Part shown: piece after piece, positions 1 through 13,227 of the stretch
How the letters are laid out: each line of letters begins with the position of its first letter
How positions within the stretch are numbered: position 1 is the stretch's first letter
The notes under the pieces: generated by a model
Told to the model about the DNA's origin: nothing
What the model saw: only the letters and a program-made list of their open reading frames with translations
The model's database searches: none
Made by a program: the position numbers and the translations under genes
IMG/VR virus record: IMGVR_UViG_3300000405_002089
Coordinates: 1-27,984 of that record
Source: a virus
Length of the DNA: 27,984 nt
Strand: one strand, 5' to 3'

Positions 1-42
1 TTAATCCGCAGGTCCCTGGTTCGAGTCCAGGTCGGGGAGCCA
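1..42 (+). tRNA. tRNA-Asn 3' half (attachment-site end)
   Basis: Bases 1-42 fold as the 3' half of a tRNA. Bases 1-4 are the end of the anticodon loop, reading UU then AA. Bases 5-9 are the 3' strand of the anticodon stem and 10-14 a five-base variable loop. The T stem CCTGG/CCAGG (15-19, 27-31) encloses TTCGAGT. Bases 32-38 are the acceptor 3' strand, followed by discriminator G39 and an encoded CCA. An anticodon ending UU with a G discriminator fits Asn (GUU) rather than Lys. The 5' half is outside the window, so I cannot tell whether the host gene is intact. A tRNA 3' half next to a recombinase is the classic end of an integrated element. Confidence 0.85.
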
Positions 43-1566
43 CCCAACATCACTGTGAACCACGGTCGAAAGACCGTGGTTCATTAGTTTCTGGGGCTGG
101 TATTTGATCACCAGCGCCTCTCCCTCCACCACGATCTTGTCCACGAAGCTGGCGAAGAACTGACGCACGACGATCGGATCCTCGCAGTCGGTGATGATCG
201 CGCGCAGCACGGCCGTGGCCTGGCCGATCATATCCTCGCTGATGTTGATCTCCGGATCATGCGCACTGTCCAGGTCGGCCAGTGCCCGCGTGGCCCCCTC
301 GATCTCCGCTTTGATCTCGCGCAGGCGCACGGTGATGTCGCCGAGGTTCGGCGCGTCGACCCCGTGCAGCTCCAGGATACCGAAGAGGTTCTTCTGCCGG
401 CGCTCGGCCTCGCGCAGGCTGGCGGTGAGGTGGGCGCGCTGCTCGGAGCGATCTTTCCACCAGGTCTGGGTCGCCGCCTGGATGTCTCGAATGATCGCAA
501 CGACCCGGTCCTCTGTCAGGATCTCATCCAGGATCGACTGCGCCACGAATTCGTCCATTTCGGGTGCGCTGACCCGCTTGGAGTTCTCGCAGAAGCCAGC
601 CTTGGCCTGGCCGCATCGGTAGTAGTGGTAAGTGCGGCTGCGGCCGGTACCGCTTTCGATATGCATGGTGCCGCCACACAGGTGGCAACGGAAAATTCCG
701 GTCAGAAGATGATGGCTTCGCGGCGCGCCGCCGGCCACGAGCGGCGCCCGGTCCTCGATGCAGCTCTGCACATCCTTGAAAAGCACCTCATCGATGATGG
801 CCTCGTGGCTTTTCGTGCGCACCCATGCCTCCTCTGGCTGCACCACGCGGCCCTTGCGCCTTCCGAAGATGGTGTGCCCGGTGTAGACCTCATTCTTCAG
901 CATGAAGTTGATGCTGGAGCGGTTCCAGCGGCGGCCACGTTGAAGCCGGCCGACGCCATTGAGCTTGTGGGCGATGGCTGTCGCGCCCACGCCCTGCAGG
1001 CACATCTGGAACATGTCGCGGACCACGCTGGCCTCACCGGCATTGATCACCAGCTTCTTGCGCGTGCCCAGCGTGACCGTCTCGTAGCCGAACGGGACGC
1101 TGCCGCCGTTGTAGAAGCCTTCCTCCGCGTTCTTGATCATGCTGCGCTTGGTGTCCTTCGAGATCCGGCGGCTGACGTTTTCGTCCATCACCTCCAGGAG
1201 AGCTTCCATGAACCAGCCCTCATCGGTCGACGAGTCGAGATCCACGGAGACGTAGACGACATCGGTGCCCAGGGCGCGCAGGTCCCGCTTGTACATCGCC
1301 GCATCAATGCGGTTGCGAGCGAAGCGCGCCGTGTCCCAGGCAATGAAGAAATCCGGCTTGTACTGCTCGCAATAGGCGATGGCCGCCTGGAAGTCCTGGC
1401 GCCGGTCCGTGCGTCCGGAGATTCCGCTGTCGGTGAAGGTGGCGATTACCGTTGCATTGAGGTCCTCGGCCTTCTTGCGGGCGAACTTGAGCTGGCTCTC
1501 GATGGGCAGCTCCTTCTTGGCCTGTTGGACCGAGCTGACGCGCAGATAAATGATGGCTGTTTTCAT
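1..1566 (-). CDS. Large serine recombinase (site-specific integrase)
   Basis: A 521-residue resolvase/invertase-type recombinase, a normal length for large serine integrases. The N-terminal catalytic domain starts with YLRVSS, in which Ser11 is the expected nucleophile and Arg9 its partner. RFAR (Arg81, Arg84) supplies further catalytic arginines. A recombinase domain follows, then a zinc ribbon (Cys294, Cys297, Cys318, Cys326), a coiled-coil segment (about 375-435) and a C-terminal tail. Such enzymes cut and rejoin att sites through a 5' phosphoserine link. The ATG overlaps the stop of the upstream gene as ATGA, so translation is probably coupled. The last 13 residues are antisense to the tRNA-Asn half and the stop codon lies in its anticodon loop. 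That tail is therefore probably acquired from the integration site. Confidence 0.93.
   Translation of the reverse strand: MKTAIIYLRVSSVQQAKKELPIESQLKFARKKAEDLNATVIATFTDSGISGRTDRRQDFQAAIAYCEQYKPDFFIAWDTARFARNRIDAAMYKRDLRALGTDVVYVSVDLDSSTDEGWFMEALLEVMDENVSRRISKDTKRSMIKNAEEGFYNGGSVPFGYETVTLGTRKKLVINAGEASVVRDMFQMCLQGVGATAIAHKLNGVGRLQRGRRWNRSSINFMLKNEVYTGHTIFGRRKGRVVQPEEAWVRTKSHEAIIDEVLFKDVQSCIEDRAPLVAGGAPRSHHLLTGIFRCHLCGGTMHIESGTGRSRTYHYYRCGQAKAGFCENSKRVSAPEMDEFVAQSILDEILTEDRVVAIIRDIQAATQTWWKDRSEQRAHLTASLREAERRQKNLFGILELHGVDAPNLGDITVRLREIKAEIEGATRALADLDSAHDPEINISEDMIGQATAVLRAIITDCEDPIVVRQFFASFVDKIVVEGEALVIKYQPQKLMNHGLSTVVHSDVGWLPDLDSNQGPAD
56..83. repeat. Perfect 12-bp hairpin with GAAA loop
   Basis: Arms at 56-67 and 72-83 are perfect inverted complements around a GAAA loop (68-71). 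The element starts 13 bases after the tRNA CCA end and lies inside the recombinase reading frame (about residues 495-504). Neither strand has a T-run after it, so it is not a textbook intrinsic terminator. It could be an RNA 3' structure for the tRNA transcript or a recombinase or accessory-protein site beside the crossover. Confidence 0.7.
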
Positions 1567-2368: not shown

Positions 2369-3427
2369 TCAGGAACGGCGCAGCTTCGCCAGCAGCTCGT
2401 TGACGGGGGTCTTGATCTTGGCCAAGGGGCTGGACTTGTCGATCGCAGCAAATTTCTTCCTGGTGGCCAGGTGCGTGTAGATCTTGGTCGAGTCGGCCTT
2501 GGCATGCCCCAGCAATTCCTGGCGCACCAGCAGGTCGATGTCGTCCTCGGCCAGCTCGGTACCGAACAGGTGGCGCAGGGCATGCGGGTGGAGCTGCTTC
2601 TCATCGATGCCGGCTTTGCGGCCGTGCTTCTTCACGATCTCCCACACAGCCTTCGGCGCGAGCCGTCGGCGCTCCCCGATGTACAGGTGATCCGGCACCA
2701 TCATGTTCATGAACGAGATGAAGAGCACCCGGTCTCCATCCGGCAGGCTGCGGTCGATGCCTTGGAGGTCTGGATGCTCCAGATACAGCCGAAGCAGCAT
2801 GTCGGCCTCTCTGGGCACGGGCACGAGGCGCTCTTTTTCTCCCTTCTCGAAGGTGCGGAGCATGTAGCGGGACTGGCCGTCATATTCCGTGGCCATCAGC
2901 GCTGACTCATTGAGCCCGGCCACGCCGTCGCGGCGCAGGCCGCAGCCTGCCATGAGAGCCAAGATCGCGGCATCGCGCACGCCCTGAAGCGTACTGAAGT
3001 CCGGTGCCCACATCAGCTTCTCGGCATTGGCCAGGGTCATCATCGAGGGGAGGCGCTTCCCGGCCTTGGGATAGTGCAGGGCCTCCGCGGGATCCTGGGA
3101 GATCACCTTGTGGTGCTTCGCCCATTCGTAGAAGGCCTTGATCGCTGCGACGTACGGGCGCCGGCTATTGGCCTGGACGCCCTGCTTGTGGAGCCATGCG
3201 CCGGTGAACATTTCCAGCTGCTCCTCTGTGGCGGCGAGCAAGCCATCCTGGCCGAGGAACTGCTCCAGGCGCGCCAGGTGGCGACAGTACATATCGACGG
3301 TCTTGGCGCCACGCCCCTTGTTGAACCGAATGAAGCGCCGGAAGCGGGCAATTTGCTCGCTCTCCGCCTTCTCCTCGGGGGTACCAGGGGCAGCGCAACT
3401 TGTGGAGCTGTGGATCGCTTGATTCAT
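2369..3427 (-). CDS. Tyrosine recombinase / phage integrase family
   Basis: A 352-residue tyrosine recombinase with both domains. The N-terminal SAM-like core-binding domain (about 25-115) includes RGAKTVDMYCRHLARLEQFL. The catalytic domain (about 130-335) has the expected set of residues: Arg165 in GCGLRRDG, His282-x-x-Arg285 in HPHALRH, His308 in LLGHAKADS and the nucleophile Tyr317 in KIYTH. It should cut and rejoin DNA by a 3' phosphotyrosine link, as XerC/D and lambda Int do. It lies directly downstream of the phased repeat array, which could be its promoter region or contain its binding sites. It is one of three recombinases in the window. Which one carries out integration cannot be settled from sequence, but tRNA 3' attachment sites are more typical of tyrosine integrases. 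Confidence 0.92.
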   Translation of the reverse strand: MNQAIHSSTSCAAPGTPEEKAESEQIARFRRFIRFNKGRGAKTVDMYCRHLARLEQFLGQDGLLAATEEQLEMFTGAWLHKQGVQANSRRPYVAAIKAFYEWAKHHKVISQDPAEALHYPKAGKRLPSMMTLANAEKLMWAPDFSTLQGVRDAAILALMAGCGLRRDGVAGLNESALMATEYDGQSRYMLRTFEKGEKERLVPVPREADMLLRLYLEHPDLQGIDRSLPDGDRVLFISFMNMMVPDHLYIGERRRLAPKAVWEIVKKHGRKAGIDEKQLHPHALRHLFGTELAEDDIDLLVRQELLGHAKADSTKIYTHLATRKKFAAIDKSSPLAKIKTPVNELLAKLRRS

Positions 3428-3812: not shown

Positions 3813-4370
3813 CTATTGCGGCCCCCTGGCTCTCTTCGTCGAGGTTTTCCCCGAGCCCGGCTCCTTGCTTAGGGGGAACGGGGGAACAGGCGAGGCGAAC
3901 GGGTCCGGGCGGCCGATATCCTGATCAGCGGCCTGCGGCCGAGGGAGTCCTGGCCAGGCTGGAAGATGGGGCGACACGCGCTGCAGGACCAGCTCCTCGG
4001 CGACATCGAAGAGGCCGAGCTTGCCGGGCATGGGAATGAACGGGAACGACGCTGGCCTAGCCAGCACGAAGCCATGCGGGCCGAAGAACCAGGGCGAGTT
4101 GCTCTCATCTACGCAGTCCACCATCTCTACGACGCCCACGAGCCCGCCTCGGCCGATCAGGTCCTCCGTAGGGATCACGTGTACCAGATCCGGGCGCGCC
4201 TTCAGGATCGCCCTGTGGCCCCCATGGTCGTACTGGCCAGCGGCATGTATCAGCAGCGGCCCCCGGTGCTTGGCACGCCAAGTGCGGTTCTCGATGCGTT
4301 TCGGCTGCGCGTAGTGTTCGGCGTTCAGGATGAGCCAGGCCCACGGCTGGCGGATGGATAAAGCCTTCAT
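3813..4370 (-). CDS. ASCH-domain protein
   Basis: A 185-residue protein. Residues 1-125 match the ASCH fold (PUA-like superfamily): MKALSIRQPWAWLIL at the start, IENRTW, RGPLLIHAAG, and a GLVGVVEMVDC strand. ASCH domains bind nucleic acid or nucleotides; small phage ASCH proteins mostly have no assigned substrate. The last 60 residues form a Pro/Ser/Lys-rich tail, probably disordered. The start overlaps the Dam-type methylase stop by ATGA, so the two are translated together. Since PUA-like folds (ASCH, EVE, SRA, YTH) include readers of modified bases, a link to DNA methylation is possible but unproven. It is the last gene before the repeat array. Confidence 0.85.
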   Translation of the reverse strand: MKALSIRQPWAWLILNAEHYAQPKRIENRTWRAKHRGPLLIHAAGQYDHGGHRAILKARPDLVHVIPTEDLIGRGGLVGVVEMVDCVDESNSPWFFGPHGFVLARPASFPFIPMPGKLGLFDVAEELVLQRVSPHLPAWPGLPRPQAADQDIGRPDPFASPVPPFPLSKEPGSGKTSTKRARGPQ

Positions 4371-5236
4371 TCGATTCCTAACAGTAAGGGTTGATGAGCC
4401 GCTTCATTCAGTGCATTTGCGGCCGCAGGATTGATCCAGACACACTCGGTTTTAACTTTTGTGCCGCGGCCGGCCGAGATCCGGGCTTTGGTCTGATGGA
4501 GCGTCCAGCCCGGTAGCCGCGCGTGATAGAGGTCTGTGTAGTACCCGGAGAGCACCACCATGCCGCGCAACGAAGTGAGGATGGACAGCAGCTCAACGTG
4601 TGCAGCGTCATCCATCTCATGCCGGTAGGCTTGGATTTTTCCGTTCTTGATCCGAGGGACGCGGGTCTCAAACACGTACGGTGGGTCTACGAAGTGCAGA
4701 GTTTCCGGACCGTCGTGTTGCACCATCACTTCTATCGCCGGCCGGTTCTCGATGAGCACCCCGCGCAGGCGCTCGCCTGCAGCCTCGATGGCGTCCGGAT
4801 ATGCCGTCCAGTCGTGCTGTGCCGTGCCATATGCGCGCTTCGTATCGATCCTGAAGCCTGTCATCCCCTTCGTCGCTCCAGCAGAACCGAACCCCATCTG
4901 CGCGCGGATGCAAAGCCTTCGAGCGCGTTCAATGGGATCCTCGGACGGGGTCCACGCCTCGACGAATTCTTCGCGGGCATAGGGAGTCAGCCGCACGGCA
5001 TCGACCAGCTGCGATCTGGCGATCGGGTCACGAAGGACGCGGAAAAGGTTCACGACATCGCCATCGAGGTCGTTATAGACCTCCGCATAGCAGCGCGGCT
5101 TCTGCAGCAAGACGCCGGCGGCACCACCGAAGGGCTCGACATAGCAGGTGTGCGGCGGGAAAAAACTCTGGATCCAGCTGGATAGCCGGAACTTCGCCCC
5201 GTGATACCGGAGGGCCGGTCGGGTCACCTTGCTCAT
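4367..5236 (-). CDS. DNA N6-adenine methyltransferase, D12 (Dam/DpnII) class
   Basis: A 289-residue methyltransferase that transfers a methyl group from S-adenosylmethionine to adenine N6. Motif X is RYHGAK (10-15, a variant of YxGGK), motif I is VEPFGGAAGVL (33-43) and the catalytic motif IV is DPPY (184-187). The order X-I-IV is that of the alpha group (Dam, M.DpnII). No restriction endonuclease lies beside it, so it is an orphan enzyme. It may protect phage DNA from host restriction or tune replication and transcription through GATC-like sites; the actual target is not predictable here. It overlaps the primase-helicase stop by ATGA and the ASCH start by four bases, so all three are in one operon. 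Confidence 0.93.
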   Translation of the reverse strand: MSKVTRPALRYHGAKFRLSSWIQSFFPPHTCYVEPFGGAAGVLLQKPRCYAEVYNDLDGDVVNLFRVLRDPIARSQLVDAVRLTPYAREEFVEAWTPSEDPIERARRLCIRAQMGFGSAGATKGMTGFRIDTKRAYGTAQHDWTAYPDAIEAAGERLRGVLIENRPAIEVMVQHDGPETLHFVDPPYVFETRVPRIKNGKIQAYRHEMDDAAHVELLSILTSLRGMVVLSGYYTDLYHARLPGWTLHQTKARISAGRGTKVKTECVWINPAAANALNEAAHQPLLLGIE

Positions 5237-8557: not shown

Positions 8558-9290
8558 GATCTGCCCCCTGCGCGACGTTCGTGGCCACGGCCACCGGCTG
8601 CGCCACGGCTGGCGAGGGGGAGGCGCAGCAGCGTGCCAGCACCTCAGATTCGACCGCCCGCACGAATGCCAAAGTCTCATCGCGCCCGAACATTCGGTAA
8701 ATGGTCTGCCCGTTGGCGGTGGCCGCAATCTGGTCAACGACGGTATCGCCCATTGCGACGTACTGGAGCGTCGCACGATGCGCTGCCTGATCGACAGGAA
8801 CTGGCCCTGCCGGTGGTGGGGTCTCGTCGTCTTTTCGGCCGCGGCTCGAATGTCGCAGCTGCGCGACGATATCGCACAGACTTGCCTGCTTGGCGGCGCC
8901 TGCCGCCCCATTCAGTAGCACATCGATCTCGCGCACCAGGCGGCGGTGGTCGGCCAATACCTCCTCGTAGTCAGCCGCCGTCAAGCCATCCTCTGCAGGC
9001 GTCTTGCCATACTCCTCCTTCAGTTGATCGATCAGGCGCTTGTTGCGCTGGCCGACTCCACTCAAGAGGGCGAGGAGTAATAGGTCATGCGGACCGCGCG
9101 TCACACGGTTGAAGCCCTTGATAGCGAGGGACTTCCAGGCGCGCGTCGGGCTGTCGATGCGTGAGAGGCGAACCTTGTAATTACCCTCTTCCCGCGTGCC
9201 GGTACCATCGTTGGCGATCTCGATGGTTCCCATGTGACGCGCCTTCGACTGGTCGCCCAGGGGCCACATTTCGATGCGGACGTGGATCAT
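8541..9290 (-). CDS. Hypothetical phage protein, two-part
   Basis: A 249-residue protein starting MIHVRIEMWPLGD. The first ~75 residues (beta-rich, with IANDGTGTREEGNYKVRL) look like a small phage protein family usually found alone. The rest is a separate, mostly helical part with LTAADYEEVLADHRRLVREIDVLLNG, then a Pro-rich stretch and a second helical block. A fusion of two genes is therefore possible. The C-terminal end (QPVAVATN..QG) nearly repeats the C-terminal end of the upstream cytosine methyltransferase (RPVAVAMN..QG), a 28-base repeat in DNA. The ATG at 9290 overlaps the methyltransferase stop by ATGA. The upstream extension of the frame lies inside that gene and is not used. Confidence 0.75.
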   Translation of the reverse strand: MIHVRIEMWPLGDQSKARHMGTIEIANDGTGTREEGNYKVRLSRIDSPTRAWKSLAIKGFNRVTRGPHDLLLLALLSGVGQRNKRLIDQLKEEYGKTPAEDGLTAADYEEVLADHRRLVREIDVLLNGAAGAAKQASLCDIVAQLRHSSRGRKDDETPPPAGPVPVDQAAHRATLQYVAMGDTVVDQIAATANGQTIYRMFGRDETLAFVRAVESEVLARCCASPSPAVAQPVAVATNVAQGADHGCAT

Positions 9291-11227
9291 GCTTGGTCTC
9301 CCTGTGTGAGGTTCATGGCCACGGCCACCGGCCGCACCCAGATTGGCGCTGCGCTCAGTTGGAAGGTCTCGCCGGACCAGGCCAAGAGCAAGGTGCGACC
9401 CATCTCGGAAGCGATGGCCTCGGCCGCAGCCGGGGGGACAGCGTTCCCGATGCGCTCGCGCCAAGCTTGATCCGACAGGCCGTCCAGCTCCAGCATCTCC
9501 TCCGGGTCCACCAGGGACTGCAGTGCGGCCAGCTCCAGGGTCGTGAAGGGACGGTGCCAAGTGCCGTCCAGCGCACGGATGACGCAGACGAGCTTGTCGG
9601 CCGCCGCCGGTATGCGCGGGTCAGCGACCGACCAGCGGCCGTTGTCGTAGCTGGCCGCCGAGGCCACAGCACCAGAGTGCGCATCCATGGGCAGAACGCC
9701 ATAGTGGCCACCGGTCAGGTAGTGGTCCCCCTTCTGGGGAATGCCGGCCGGGCGCGGGTCGGCCACGGCATAGGCCCCGTTGGCATTCCCGGCAATGACC
9801 GCGCGGCTATGCTCATTCCAGCCATGCACGGGGTATTTCCCGTGCAGATCCGATGCCACCTCGCTTCCGCGGGGATCTGCGACAGCGAAGGCACCATTGC
9901 CAGTCGTGGATGCGGAAATGACGGCGCCGGCAGGCTCGCCCATGCCCGTCACGCGGTATTTCGTCTGCTTGTAGTCTTCGCGCTGTGCTGGACGCGGATC
10001 CGCGACGGCCTGGCCGGTGCCGTGAGCGCTGGTCACCGCGCACGATGAGCGATCCCATTCGACGATGCGGAACTCGTTGGAGTGCTTGGCAGGGCCGGCG
10101 TGGCGCGGGTCCGCGATCGAGAAAGTGCCCTGGCCGGGCGACTTGACGCCGATCACCGCGCCGGACGATTCCCGCCAATCCAGCACGCCATACTGCTGGT
10201 ACTCGGCCGCGCCGGCCGCAGCGCGTGGGTCTGCGACAGCGAAGGAGCCATTGTTCGGCAGGCTGCGGCCGGTGACGGTACCGCGCGTCGCTTGCCAGGC
10301 ATCCACGCCCAGAAAGCCGCCGTTGCGGTTTTCCGGCACGATCAGGTAATCCCGCAGGTGGCCGTGCTCGATCGCCAGGCGGTTGAGGCTGCGCCAGTCC
10401 TTGCCGGCCTCCACGAATGCAAGGCGCACCCAGGTCTTCCACTGCAGCGACGGGATACGGTGCATCGGGCCGCCGGCCGGATCACCCGGCAGTGGCATCC
10501 GGCCCAAGATATCGCCCACCGCCAGCAGGCTGCGCTTCGGCGGTTCGTAGAGGAAGTTCGGTACCTTGGCCATGTGGCGGCCGACCAGCAGGAACCGCTT
10601 GCGGCTCTGGGCCAGGCCTCCGATCTCACCGCAGTCGTGCGTGGTCTCGGCCGTCGCATAGCCATACTGGCGCAGCAGCGCGACGATCTGGTCCAGCAGG
10701 TTGCGCCCACGGGTGGCGATGCGCGGCACGTTCTCGAAGATGATCAGCTCCGGGGGATCGTCGGCCCAGGCCTCCAGCATCAGCCAGACGCCGCGCAGGG
10801 TCAGCCGGTTGAGGGCCTGGTACTTGTCGGTCTTGCTCTTGCCCTCGGCCAGCAGGCCGGAGAAGCCCTTGCACGGTGCGGACAGGAACACGATATGCGG
10901 GCGTTCGCCGCCGGCAGCGCGGCTGATGTCGGCGGGGAGGGCCTCACGCCAGCCAGGCGGCGGCATGTGACCGTGGAAGGCCAGGTACTGGTCCAGGTCG
11001 AACAGGTCCAGGGTCGTGGCCGGCACGCCCACCAGGCGGCCGAAATCGCGGTTCGCTGCAGCATCCACGTCCACGCTGCCGATGCAGCGGAACTTGGCCA
11101 CCATGTTGCCCACGCGGGCGCTGGCCCGGCAGAAGCCACGGGCTCCACCGCCGATGGCGCCGAACAGGTGGAAGTGGCGGATCTCACGGACGTCGTCCTT
11201 GATGCCACTGAAAATATCTCGCTTCAT
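9287..11227 (-). CDS. DNA cytosine-C5 methyltransferase with six tandem internal repeats
   Basis: A 646-residue enzyme; typical members have 330-450 residues. The C5-MTase motifs are in order: a motif I-like N-terminus (HLFGAIGGGARG, 20-31), catalytic motif IV APCKGFSG (Cys119), motif VI FENV (164-167), motif VIII QSRKR (207-211), motif IX-like FTTLELAALQ (561-570) and motif X GNAVPP (594-599). The extra length lies between VIII and IX, where the target-recognition domain belongs. Residues ~301-538 are six diverged repeats, each ending (V/I)ADPR at 331, 371, 408, 449, 488 and 534, so the unit is 37-46 residues. No partner endonuclease is nearby. It probably protects phage DNA. Because recognition is normally set in this region, the repeats may affect specificity. 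Confidence 0.93.
   Translation of the reverse strand: MKRDIFSGIKDDVREIRHFHLFGAIGGGARGFCRASARVGNMVAKFRCIGSVDVDAAANRDFGRLVGVPATTLDLFDLDQYLAFHGHMPPPGWREALPADISRAAGGERPHIVFLSAPCKGFSGLLAEGKSKTDKYQALNRLTLRGVWLMLEAWADDPPELIIFENVPRIATRGRNLLDQIVALLRQYGYATAETTHDCGEIGGLAQSRKRFLLVGRHMAKVPNFLYEPPKRSLLAVGDILGRMPLPGDPAGGPMHRIPSLQWKTWVRLAFVEAGKDWRSLNRLAIEHGHLRDYLIVPENRNGGFLGVDAWQATRGTVTGRSLPNNGSFAVADPRAAAGAAEYQQYGVLDWRESSGAVIGVKSPGQGTFSIADPRHAGPAKHSNEFRIVEWDRSSCAVTSAHGTGQAVADPRPAQREDYKQTKYRVTGMGEPAGAVISASTTGNGAFAVADPRGSEVASDLHGKYPVHGWNEHSRAVIAGNANGAYAVADPRPAGIPQKGDHYLTGGHYGVLPMDAHSGAVASAASYDNGRWSVADPRIPAAADKLVCVIRALDGTWHRPFTTLELAALQSLVDPEEMLELDGLSDQAWRERIGNAVPPAAAEAIASEMGRTLLLAWSGETFQLSAAPIWVRPVAVAMNLTQGDQA
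9614..10327 (-). repeat. Six diverged coding repeats ending (V/I)ADPR inside the cytosine methyltransferase
   Basis: Each unit has the pattern of a W or G near the start, then SGAV with a small residue, a short variable loop, G-x-G/F-x-VADPR, and a variable Ala/Pro-rich linker. Distances between the VADPR ends are 40, 37, 41, 39 and 46 residues. The SGAV/GTVTG part resembles the 'RL..W..P..Tvt' segment that precedes motif IX in ordinary C5 methyltransferases, so the units may be copies of that segment. Sequence divergence shows the expansion is not recent. Confidence 0.85.
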
Positions 11228-12268: not shown

Positions 12269-12514
12269 TCAAACTCCAGAAAGAGGGCGTGCCCAGAGGC
12301 CACGCAGGTAGCGATACGACAAGAAAATGGCCAGCATGAACATGCCCCACTGGTGCGACGAAAAGGTCTCCATGAACCAGCAGGGCTGGCCAGCCAGGCC
12401 GATGAAGCACCCGAGGCGGCGGTTCTCTTCGCCACCACGGGTCATGTAGAGCACGGAGCCGGCGCTGGTGGCGAGGATCCAGCACTGGACCAGCAGCCCG
12501 AGAAGGTCAGTCAT
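12269..12514 (-). CDS. Small phage membrane protein, two spans
   Basis: An 81-residue protein starting MTDLLGLLVQCWILATSAGSVLYM, a first hydrophobic span. A polar loop (TRGGEENRR) follows, then a second hydrophobic region GCFIGLAGQPCWFMETFSSHQWGMFMLAIFLSYRY. The GLAGQPxW...QWGMF pattern is one I associate with a small phage membrane protein family of unknown role; this is recall, not a search. The ATG at 12514 lies inside the end of the upstream recombinase gene (8-base overlap). Its position in the early operon argues against a lysis holin. Confidence 0.75.
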   Translation of the reverse strand: MTDLLGLLVQCWILATSAGSVLYMTRGGEENRRLGCFIGLAGQPCWFMETFSSHQWGMFMLAIFLSYRYLRGLWARPLSGV

Positions 12515-13178
12515 CGTTGTGTCTCCGATCGAAGCGGCGGCGCAGCTCGGCGCGGGTGATACGGTTGCCCTGATGGCGGTCCAGGTCGTCGAGGGTGTTC
12601 TCAACGTCCTCACGCAGGACGCCGGTGTACACCCCGGTCGAGGCGATGGAGTTATGGCCGAGCGCAGCCTTGACGACGCCGCGTGGGTCAGCGGCCTTGC
12701 TCCGGCGCATGATGTCGATGGCGCGCGTATGGCGCAGCCAGTGGGGGCTGAACTTGTCAGTGAGGCCGGCGGCGATCGCCCACTTCTTCAGGCGCAGCTC
12801 GATCGAGCGCACTGTCATCGGCCGGTCAGTGCTTTGACGGCTCACCAGGAGCGGGGCGGTCTTGGCAGGTTTCTCCTCGCCGGTAATCAGGATCCTGATC
12901 TCCAGGAGGTCGCGCAGTGCCTTCGAAAGCCCCAAGGTGACGTACACGCTGTGATCGCGCTTGCCGCCCTTACGGTTCTCTTTCGGGATGAAGTGGTACT
13001 TATCTGCCAGGGCCGCTTCAGCATCGCCCACCGTCATCAGGGCGAACTCCCCCACGCGCTCGGCGGAGAAGTAGAGGCCGCGAATGATGGCGCTGTCGCG
13101 GCGGGCGTAGATGTCATTGGACTGTCCAGCAGCTTTGAAAAGCCGCTTTCGTTCTTCTGGTGTCAGGTATCGCAGCAT
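12507..13178 (-). CDS. Minimal tyrosine recombinase (catalytic domain only)
   Basis: A 223-residue tyrosine recombinase that lacks the N-terminal core-binding domain. Catalytic residues are Arg41 (SAERVGE), a Lys in the KENRKGGK hairpin (about 66-73), His146-x-x-Arg149 (SPHWLRHT), His175 (LGHNS) and the nucleophile Tyr184 (GVYTG). The size and layout are like small XerD-type or invertase-like integrases (FimB/FimE are about 200 residues). It could invert or resolve DNA rather than integrate the phage. GGAG six bases before the ATG at 13178 favours that start over the ATG at 13190, which has no such site. It lies within the early operon, unusual for a recombinase. Confidence 0.88.
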   Translation of the reverse strand: MLRYLTPEERKRLFKAAGQSNDIYARRDSAIIRGLYFSAERVGEFALMTVGDAEAALADKYHFIPKENRKGGKRDHSVYVTLGLSKALRDLLEIRILITGEEKPAKTAPLLVSRQSTDRPMTVRSIELRLKKWAIAAGLTDKFSPHWLRHTRAIDIMRRSKAADPRGVVKAALGHNSIASTGVYTGVLREDVENTLDDLDRHQGNRITRAELRRRFDRRHNDD

Positions 13179-13227
13179 GTGGTTCTCCATGCGTGTGGGT
13201 GGCCCGCGCTCCCCAGCGCAGGTGGGG

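What the first reader, a model, noticed from the sequence alone, without database searches (positions are those of the whole stretch)
9614..10327. Six tandem repeats in the recognition region of a cytosine methyltransferase
Between motifs VIII and IX, where specificity is set, lie six diverged 37-46-residue units that end in (V/I)ADPR. Known multispecific phage methyltransferases carry several recognition domains, but these units are much smaller and resemble the segment just before motif IX. They could give several targets, act as a length-variable scaffold, or let the specificity evolve by repeat number.
Basis: partly seen in the sequence, partly recalled or inferred. Interest (0 to 1): 0.65.

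Follow-up and report, generated by a model that had tools for sequence, protein, structure and literature searches.

The report
Phage methyltransferase with swappable recognition modules
This phage carries a DNA-methylating enzyme whose DNA-reading part is a row of about 40-residue modules that related phages swap, add and drop one at a time, so one enzyme can probably mask several different restriction sites and keep changing the set.

Summary
A 646-aa C5-cytosine methyltransferase (9287-11227, minus strand, motifs I-X present) has six 37-46-residue units ending in (V/I)ADPR between motifs VIII and IX. Homologues in phages and prophages, nearly all of Pseudomonadota, carry 2-8 units (176 complete proteins). 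Three results identify the units as target-recognition modules. (1) Each unit is built round a TL-like dipeptide; columns that differ between unit types but are conserved within a type lie where published work puts the N-TL and C-TL DNA contacts. (2) In genes with nearly identical catalytic domains, single first or interior units are replaced or inserted, with breakpoints at unit borders; the last unit is never replaced (0 of 120 pairs). (3) The same interior type almost never occurs twice in one array (1 of 110 arrangements, about 23 expected), which argues against a TALE-like code or a spacer. Best reading: a multispecific phage anti-restriction methyltransferase with exchangeable mini-TRDs, five here plus a fixed terminal unit. 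New are a separate family, larger arrays and a shared module library. Targets are unknown; AlphaFold did not resolve the units.

The parts
9287..11227 (-). Gene of the C5-cytosine DNA methyltransferase, 646 aa
   Evidence: ORF; Pfam DNA_methylase E=3.2e-13; phrog_116 DNA methyltransferase; predicted core matches DNMT1, M.HaeIII, M.HhaI
10577..11170 (-). Catalytic domain stretch, motif I to motif VIII
   Evidence: Motif I HLFGAIGG 11147-11170, IV SAPCKGFSG 10856-10882, VI IIFENVPRI 10718-10744, VIII QSRKRFLLVGR 10577-10609; most of it pLDDT 75-97
10223..10351 (-). Unit 1 (type T01), exchangeable
   Evidence: for coordinates; for type; first unit replaced in 31 of 120 close pairs
10103..10222 (-). 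Unit 2 (type T04, loop VKSPGQG), exchangeable
9992..10102 (-). Unit 3 (type T05, loop SAHGTGQ), exchangeable
9869..9991 (-). Unit 4 (type T02, fine type 11, loop ASTTGNG), exchangeable
9752..9868 (-). Unit 5 (type T02, fine type 16, loop AGNANG), exchangeable
9614..9751 (-). Unit 6 (type T03), fixed terminal unit next to motif IX
   Evidence: Type T03 is last in 175 of 176 proteins and never replaced in 120 close pairs
9410..9553 (-). C-terminal motifs IX and X
   Evidence: Motif IX RPFTTLELAALQ 9518-9553, motif X GNAVPPAAAEAIA 9410-9448

Best explanation
An orphan, phage-encoded, multispecific C5-cytosine methyltransferase. One catalytic domain is served by an array of exchangeable mini target-recognition modules, each about 40 residues round a TL-like motif, followed by one fixed terminal unit next to motif IX. 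Each exchangeable module probably docks in turn over the target cytosine and reads its own short site, so the enzyme methylates several different sites and shields phage DNA from several host restriction enzymes. Phages change the set of sites by recombination that replaces or inserts whole modules at the conserved VADPR borders. Shown here: the array, its variability, swapping at unit borders, non-redundancy within an array, and type-specific conservation at published DNA-contact positions. Inferred: that every module has its own target, that modules act independently, that VADPR boxes guide recombination, and that the benefit is anti-restriction.
For: C5 core with all motifs. Units lie between motifs VIII and IX and contain a TL-like dipeptide ([TA][VIL][TASVI] in 88% of 985 units). 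Columns carrying type information (9, 26, 27, 30; then 25, 28, 29, 33) coincide with or adjoin the published N-TL (columns 8-10) and C-TL (26-28) trimers, while columns 14-19 vary freely within types. In 120 close pairs interior units are bimodal, 334 kept / 98 replaced / 8 between, last unit 0 replaced; background identity 56.6 +/- 4.2%; breakpoints at unit borders. Same interior fine type twice in 1 of 110 arrangements against 23.1 +/- 3.3. Sets of modules turn over faster than the catalytic domain. Genes are in phages and prophages, and the phage annotations seen show no restriction gene beside them.
Against: No methylation data and no target known. The strict published TL consensus (T, then I/L/V, then T/A/S/V) is met by only 25% of units; many have A for T. 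Unit fold not predicted (pLDDT 32-53 in L038, about 30 in the window protein). No significant sequence match of the units to the SPbeta enzyme. Module order is not free, so positions may not be equivalent. The column test is partly circular because types were clustered on the same columns; shuffle tests ignore relatedness.
Confidence: 0.75

Rival explanations
1. Composite reader: the units act together, each contacting part of one long target (a TALE- or zinc-finger-like linear array), so unit order and number spell one site.
For: Tandem units with variable residues at one or two positions; order of unit types is strongly constrained.
Against: Dozens of types, and almost no repetition of a type within an array (1 of 110 arrangements); a base code would reuse units. 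Each unit carries both N-TL- and C-TL-like positions.
Confidence: 0.1
2. Only the first and the fixed last unit make the DNA-reading domain; interior units are spacers or a scaffold of variable length.
For: One complete homologue, L038, has only these two units; the last unit is invariant.
Against: Interior units keep type-specific residues at the DNA-contact positions, encoded by varied synonymous codons; a spacer would not need distinct conserved types or avoid repetition.
Confidence: 0.08
3. The units bind a protein partner (for instance host restriction or defence proteins) and diversify in an arms race, not by DNA target.
For: Fast module turnover would also fit an arms race with proteins; the unit structure is unresolved.
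Against: Location between motifs VIII and IX, TL-like core, and specificity columns at published DNA-contact positions.
Confidence: 0.07

Closest known systems
Multispecific C5-methyltransferases of Bacillus phages SPbeta, SPR, phi3T, rho11, H2 (cited in PMC8936443; PMC2413257)
   Same: Temperate-phage C5-methyltransferase with several tandem TL-centred recognition modules between motifs VIII and IX; TL spacing in SPbeta MtbP 47 residues, similar to the units here; modules differ between related phages (from memory of that literature).
   Different: Different protein family with no significant module similarity; units end in VADPR with a fixed last unit; up to 8 units against 2-3 targets per Bacillus enzyme (from memory); a library of dozens of module types shared across many genera.
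M.(phi)BssHII and M.BssHII (cited in PMC8936443 and PMC4081073)
   Same: Multispecific C5-methyltransferase, phage-associated in the phi case.
   Different: [quoted passage not shown] here they form one array.
Monospecific C5-methyltransferases M.HhaI and M.HaeIII
   Same: Catalytic core fold and TL-type recognition geometry.
   Different: A single recognition domain of usual length instead of an array.
Type I HsdS specificity subunits and their exchange of recognition domains
   Same: Specificity evolves by swapping recognition domains at conserved borders (general knowledge; PMC3983042 title and abstract).
   Different: Large TRDs, adenine methylation, a restriction partner; no sequence relation tested or expected.

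Membership tests
C5-cytosine DNA methyltransferase (PF00145) | Conserved motifs I, IV (PC), VI (ENV), VIII (QxRxR), IX, X in order | tested here: met
   Pfam E=3.2e-13 above cut-off; motifs located; Foldseek to DNMT1, HaeIII, HhaI. The NCBIfam dcm model matches below its cut-off.
C5-cytosine DNA methyltransferase (PF00145) | Methylates cytosine at C5 in DNA | not testable with these tools
   Needs expression and bisulfite or EM-seq.
Multispecific C5-methyltransferases (SPbeta/SPR/phi3T kind) | Several TL-centred modules of about 40 residues in tandem between motifs VIII and IX | tested here: met
   Six units of 37-46 aa with TL-like core; SPbeta TL spacing 47.
Multispecific C5-methyltransferases (SPbeta/SPR/phi3T kind) | Modules gained, lost and exchanged between related enzymes | tested here: met
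Multispecific C5-methyltransferases (SPbeta/SPR/phi3T kind) | Each module confers its own methylation target | not testable with these tools
   No methylome; motif statistics inconclusive.
Multispecific C5-methyltransferases (SPbeta/SPR/phi3T kind) | Sequence homology of the modules to the Bacillus phage enzymes | tested here: not met
   Unit profile has no hit in SPbeta MtbP; hhalign of the family aligns only motifs IX-X, probability 1.1. So it works like them but is not filed as one of that sequence family.
TALE-like one-base-per-repeat arrays | Few repeat types reused many times within one array | tested here: not met
   56 fine types; a repeated interior type in 1 of 110 arrangements.
Type II restriction-modification methyltransferase | Adjacent cognate restriction endonuclease gene | tested here: inconclusive
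   Window neighbours searched are a nucleotidase-like protein, a D12 adenine methyltransferase, primase and integrases, or have no profile match; the unmatched neighbours were not examined further.

The most novel reading that the evidence does not exclude
A plug-in system for DNA recognition: one phage enzyme with up to seven independently working mini-TRDs, drawn from a library of about 50 or more module types shared by phages across Pseudomonadota and exchanged as roughly 40-codon cassettes. It would probably be the most multispecific DNA methyltransferase known, with a module-to-target table that could be read out.
Probability: 0.55. Interest if true: 0.8.

Novelty: new variant of a known kind. 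Interest (0 to 1): 0.62.

Why it matters
It would be a naturally modular DNA-recognition system in which about 40-residue parts are mixed on one catalytic core. It makes testable how phages defeat several restriction systems with one gene and how fast that set changes between near-identical phages. The number of module types and natural combinations should let module-to-target rules be worked out from a modest number of methylomes. It would also mean that many phage and prophage genes annotated simply as 'cytosine methylase' have several specificities.

Tried and rejected
(1) Structure: AlphaFold2 on the window protein (55 rows) and on the two-unit homologue L038 (117 rows); core confident, units not, so no structural claim is made for the units; Foldseek only confirms the C5 core. 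(2) Targets from published N-TL/C-TL signatures: no match to those given for GGCC, GCGC, CGCG or CCGG. (3) Targets from motif over- or under-representation in 90 viral loci against unit type: 2 of 451 tests just pass Bonferroni (GCGC, CGCG), several types point at the same GC-rich motifs, and relatedness was not controlled; treated as inconclusive. (4) Sequence link to PDB entries and to the SPbeta enzyme: none for the units. (5) Copy-number change of one repeat as the way specificity evolves: rejected, because units in one array are of different types. (6) Literature: no paper on these arrays found in the held library. Trautner 1996 is not held, so the roughly 40-residue TRD size is from memory plus the SPbeta spacing.

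Full report
What is there. The window is an IMG/VR phage record with tail and baseplate genes, a primase, recombinases and two DNA methyltransferases. The gene at 9287-11227 (-) encodes a 646-residue C5-cytosine methyltransferase: Pfam DNA_methylase E=3.2e-13, motifs I, IV, VI, VIII, IX and X in order, and Foldseek matches of the predicted core to DNMT1, M.HaeIII and M.HhaI. Between motifs VIII and IX lie six units of 43, 40, 37, 41, 39 and 46 residues, each ending in VADPR or IADPR (9614-10351). Shuffles give 0.001 such pentapeptides on average, and the residues before the pentapeptide are also far more alike than shuffled ones.

Relatives. Scans of viral and genome collections give about 190 loci, nearly all in phages and in genomes of Pseudomonadota; 176 proteins are complete. 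A profile of the unit finds 2 (1 protein), 4 (3), 5 (85), 6 (68), 7 (14) or 8 (5) units. The larger scans return only the best 80 loci, so the distribution is biased to near relatives, and some loci are the same phage twice. Named phages: PBC5 8 units, LKA5 6, CF418P1 6, D14A 5, PS3 4, H66 4. The 985 units fall into 24 coarse types and 56 finer types based on the putative specificity columns, 27 of them with five or more members. There are 69 coarse and 110 fine arrangements among 176 proteins. The last unit is of one coarse type in 175 of 176. The other places draw from the library in a loosely fixed order (T01, then T04, then T05/T06, then T02, then T07/T11).

Units are recognition modules. 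Published work on C5-methyltransferases places DNA contacts on both sides of a conserved TL dipeptide, with trimers at the spacing NNN-x10-TL-x3-CCC, and records that the TL motif was used to define and swap recognition domains of the multispecific enzymes (PMC2413257). In the unit alignment the TL equivalent ([TA][VI]) is at columns 21-22, so the published contact trimers fall at columns 8-10 and 26-28. The columns with most information about unit type are 9, 26, 27 and 30, with 7, 33, 5, 25, 29 and 28 behind. The strand between (columns 14-19) varies freely within types, and V22, V35 and ADPR hardly vary at all. Within a type the conserved residues are encoded by several synonymous codons, so they are held by selection on the protein. 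The types were clustered on the same columns, so this test is partly circular; where the peaks fall was not built in.

Units are exchanged as cassettes. Among 120 pairs of genes whose catalytic domains are at least 88% identical in DNA, interior units are either kept (334) or replaced/absent (98), with 8 in between. First units are kept 73 times, replaced 31 times and intermediate 16 times. Last units are never replaced (118 kept, 2 intermediate). Background identity of different-type units is 56.6 +/- 4.2%. Identity drops and recovers at unit borders: only unit 2 in L176/L194 and L088/L174, only unit 3 in L145/L157, units 1 and 4 in L134/L137, an inserted unit in L129/L176. Against its relative L003 (catalytic domain 92.7% identical), the window gene has different units 1, 4 and 5 and kept 2, 3 and 6. 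Even at 90-95% amino-acid identity of the catalytic domain only a third of pairs carry the same set, and below 80% the similarity of sets levels off at a Jaccard index of about 0.25. The VADPR coding box (GTNGCNGAYCCNCGN) shares on average 12 of 15 bases between neighbouring units and may serve as recombination homology; that step is inference.

Units in one array differ from each other. Only 1 of 110 distinct arrangements contains the same interior fine type twice, against 40 under free shuffling and 23.1 +/- 3.3 under a position-preserving shuffle; of 19 proteins with two T02 units none has the same sub-type twice. Relatedness makes exact probabilities unreliable, and arrays of different layout inflate the null, but the deficit is large. 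It is expected if each module adds a different specificity, and not if the units are a linear base code or a spacer.

How it most likely works. One catalytic domain with one fixed terminal unit (probably part of the small domain next to motif IX) is served in turn by five exchangeable modules, each reading its own short cytosine-containing site. The phage DNA is thereby protected against several restriction enzymes, and the protected set changes by module replacement. Independence of modules, the targets and the anti-restriction benefit are inferred; no methylation data were available. AlphaFold could not resolve the units, published four-base signatures do not match them, and motif statistics gave nothing reliable.

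Relation to what is known. The principle, several contiguous TL modules on one C5 core in temperate phages, is that of the Bacillus SPbeta/SPR/phi3T enzymes. PMC8936443 states that these contain multiple target recognition domains in tandem that result in multiple recognition sequences. The present family shows no significant module similarity to that enzyme, has larger arrays with a fixed end unit, and shares a large module library. I found no description of it in the held literature; subscription papers and REBASE could not be checked. I therefore call it a new variant of a known kind.

Noticed in passing
window 10856-10882: Motif IV reads SAPCKGFSG, with K where most C5-methyltransferases have Q (PCQxxS, from memory); the K is invariant or nearly so in the family.
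   Followed up: partly
window 1-1566, 2369-3427, 12507-13190: Three site-specific recombinase genes in one phage record: a serine recombinase and two tyrosine integrases.
   Followed up: no
window 4367-5236: A second methyltransferase gene, D12-class adenine (PF02086).
   Followed up: no
L010:4001-6140: A close homologue whose frame is broken by what looks like a local duplication round motif VI, with the recognition units intact downstream; could be assembly error.
   Followed up: no
L035:3974-6022: Two extra bare SVADPR copies in a row inside the array, as if the border box itself had been duplicated.
   Followed up: no
L038:3989-5419: Shortest complete homologue, with only the first and the fixed last unit: possibly a natural monospecific minimum.
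   Followed up: partly
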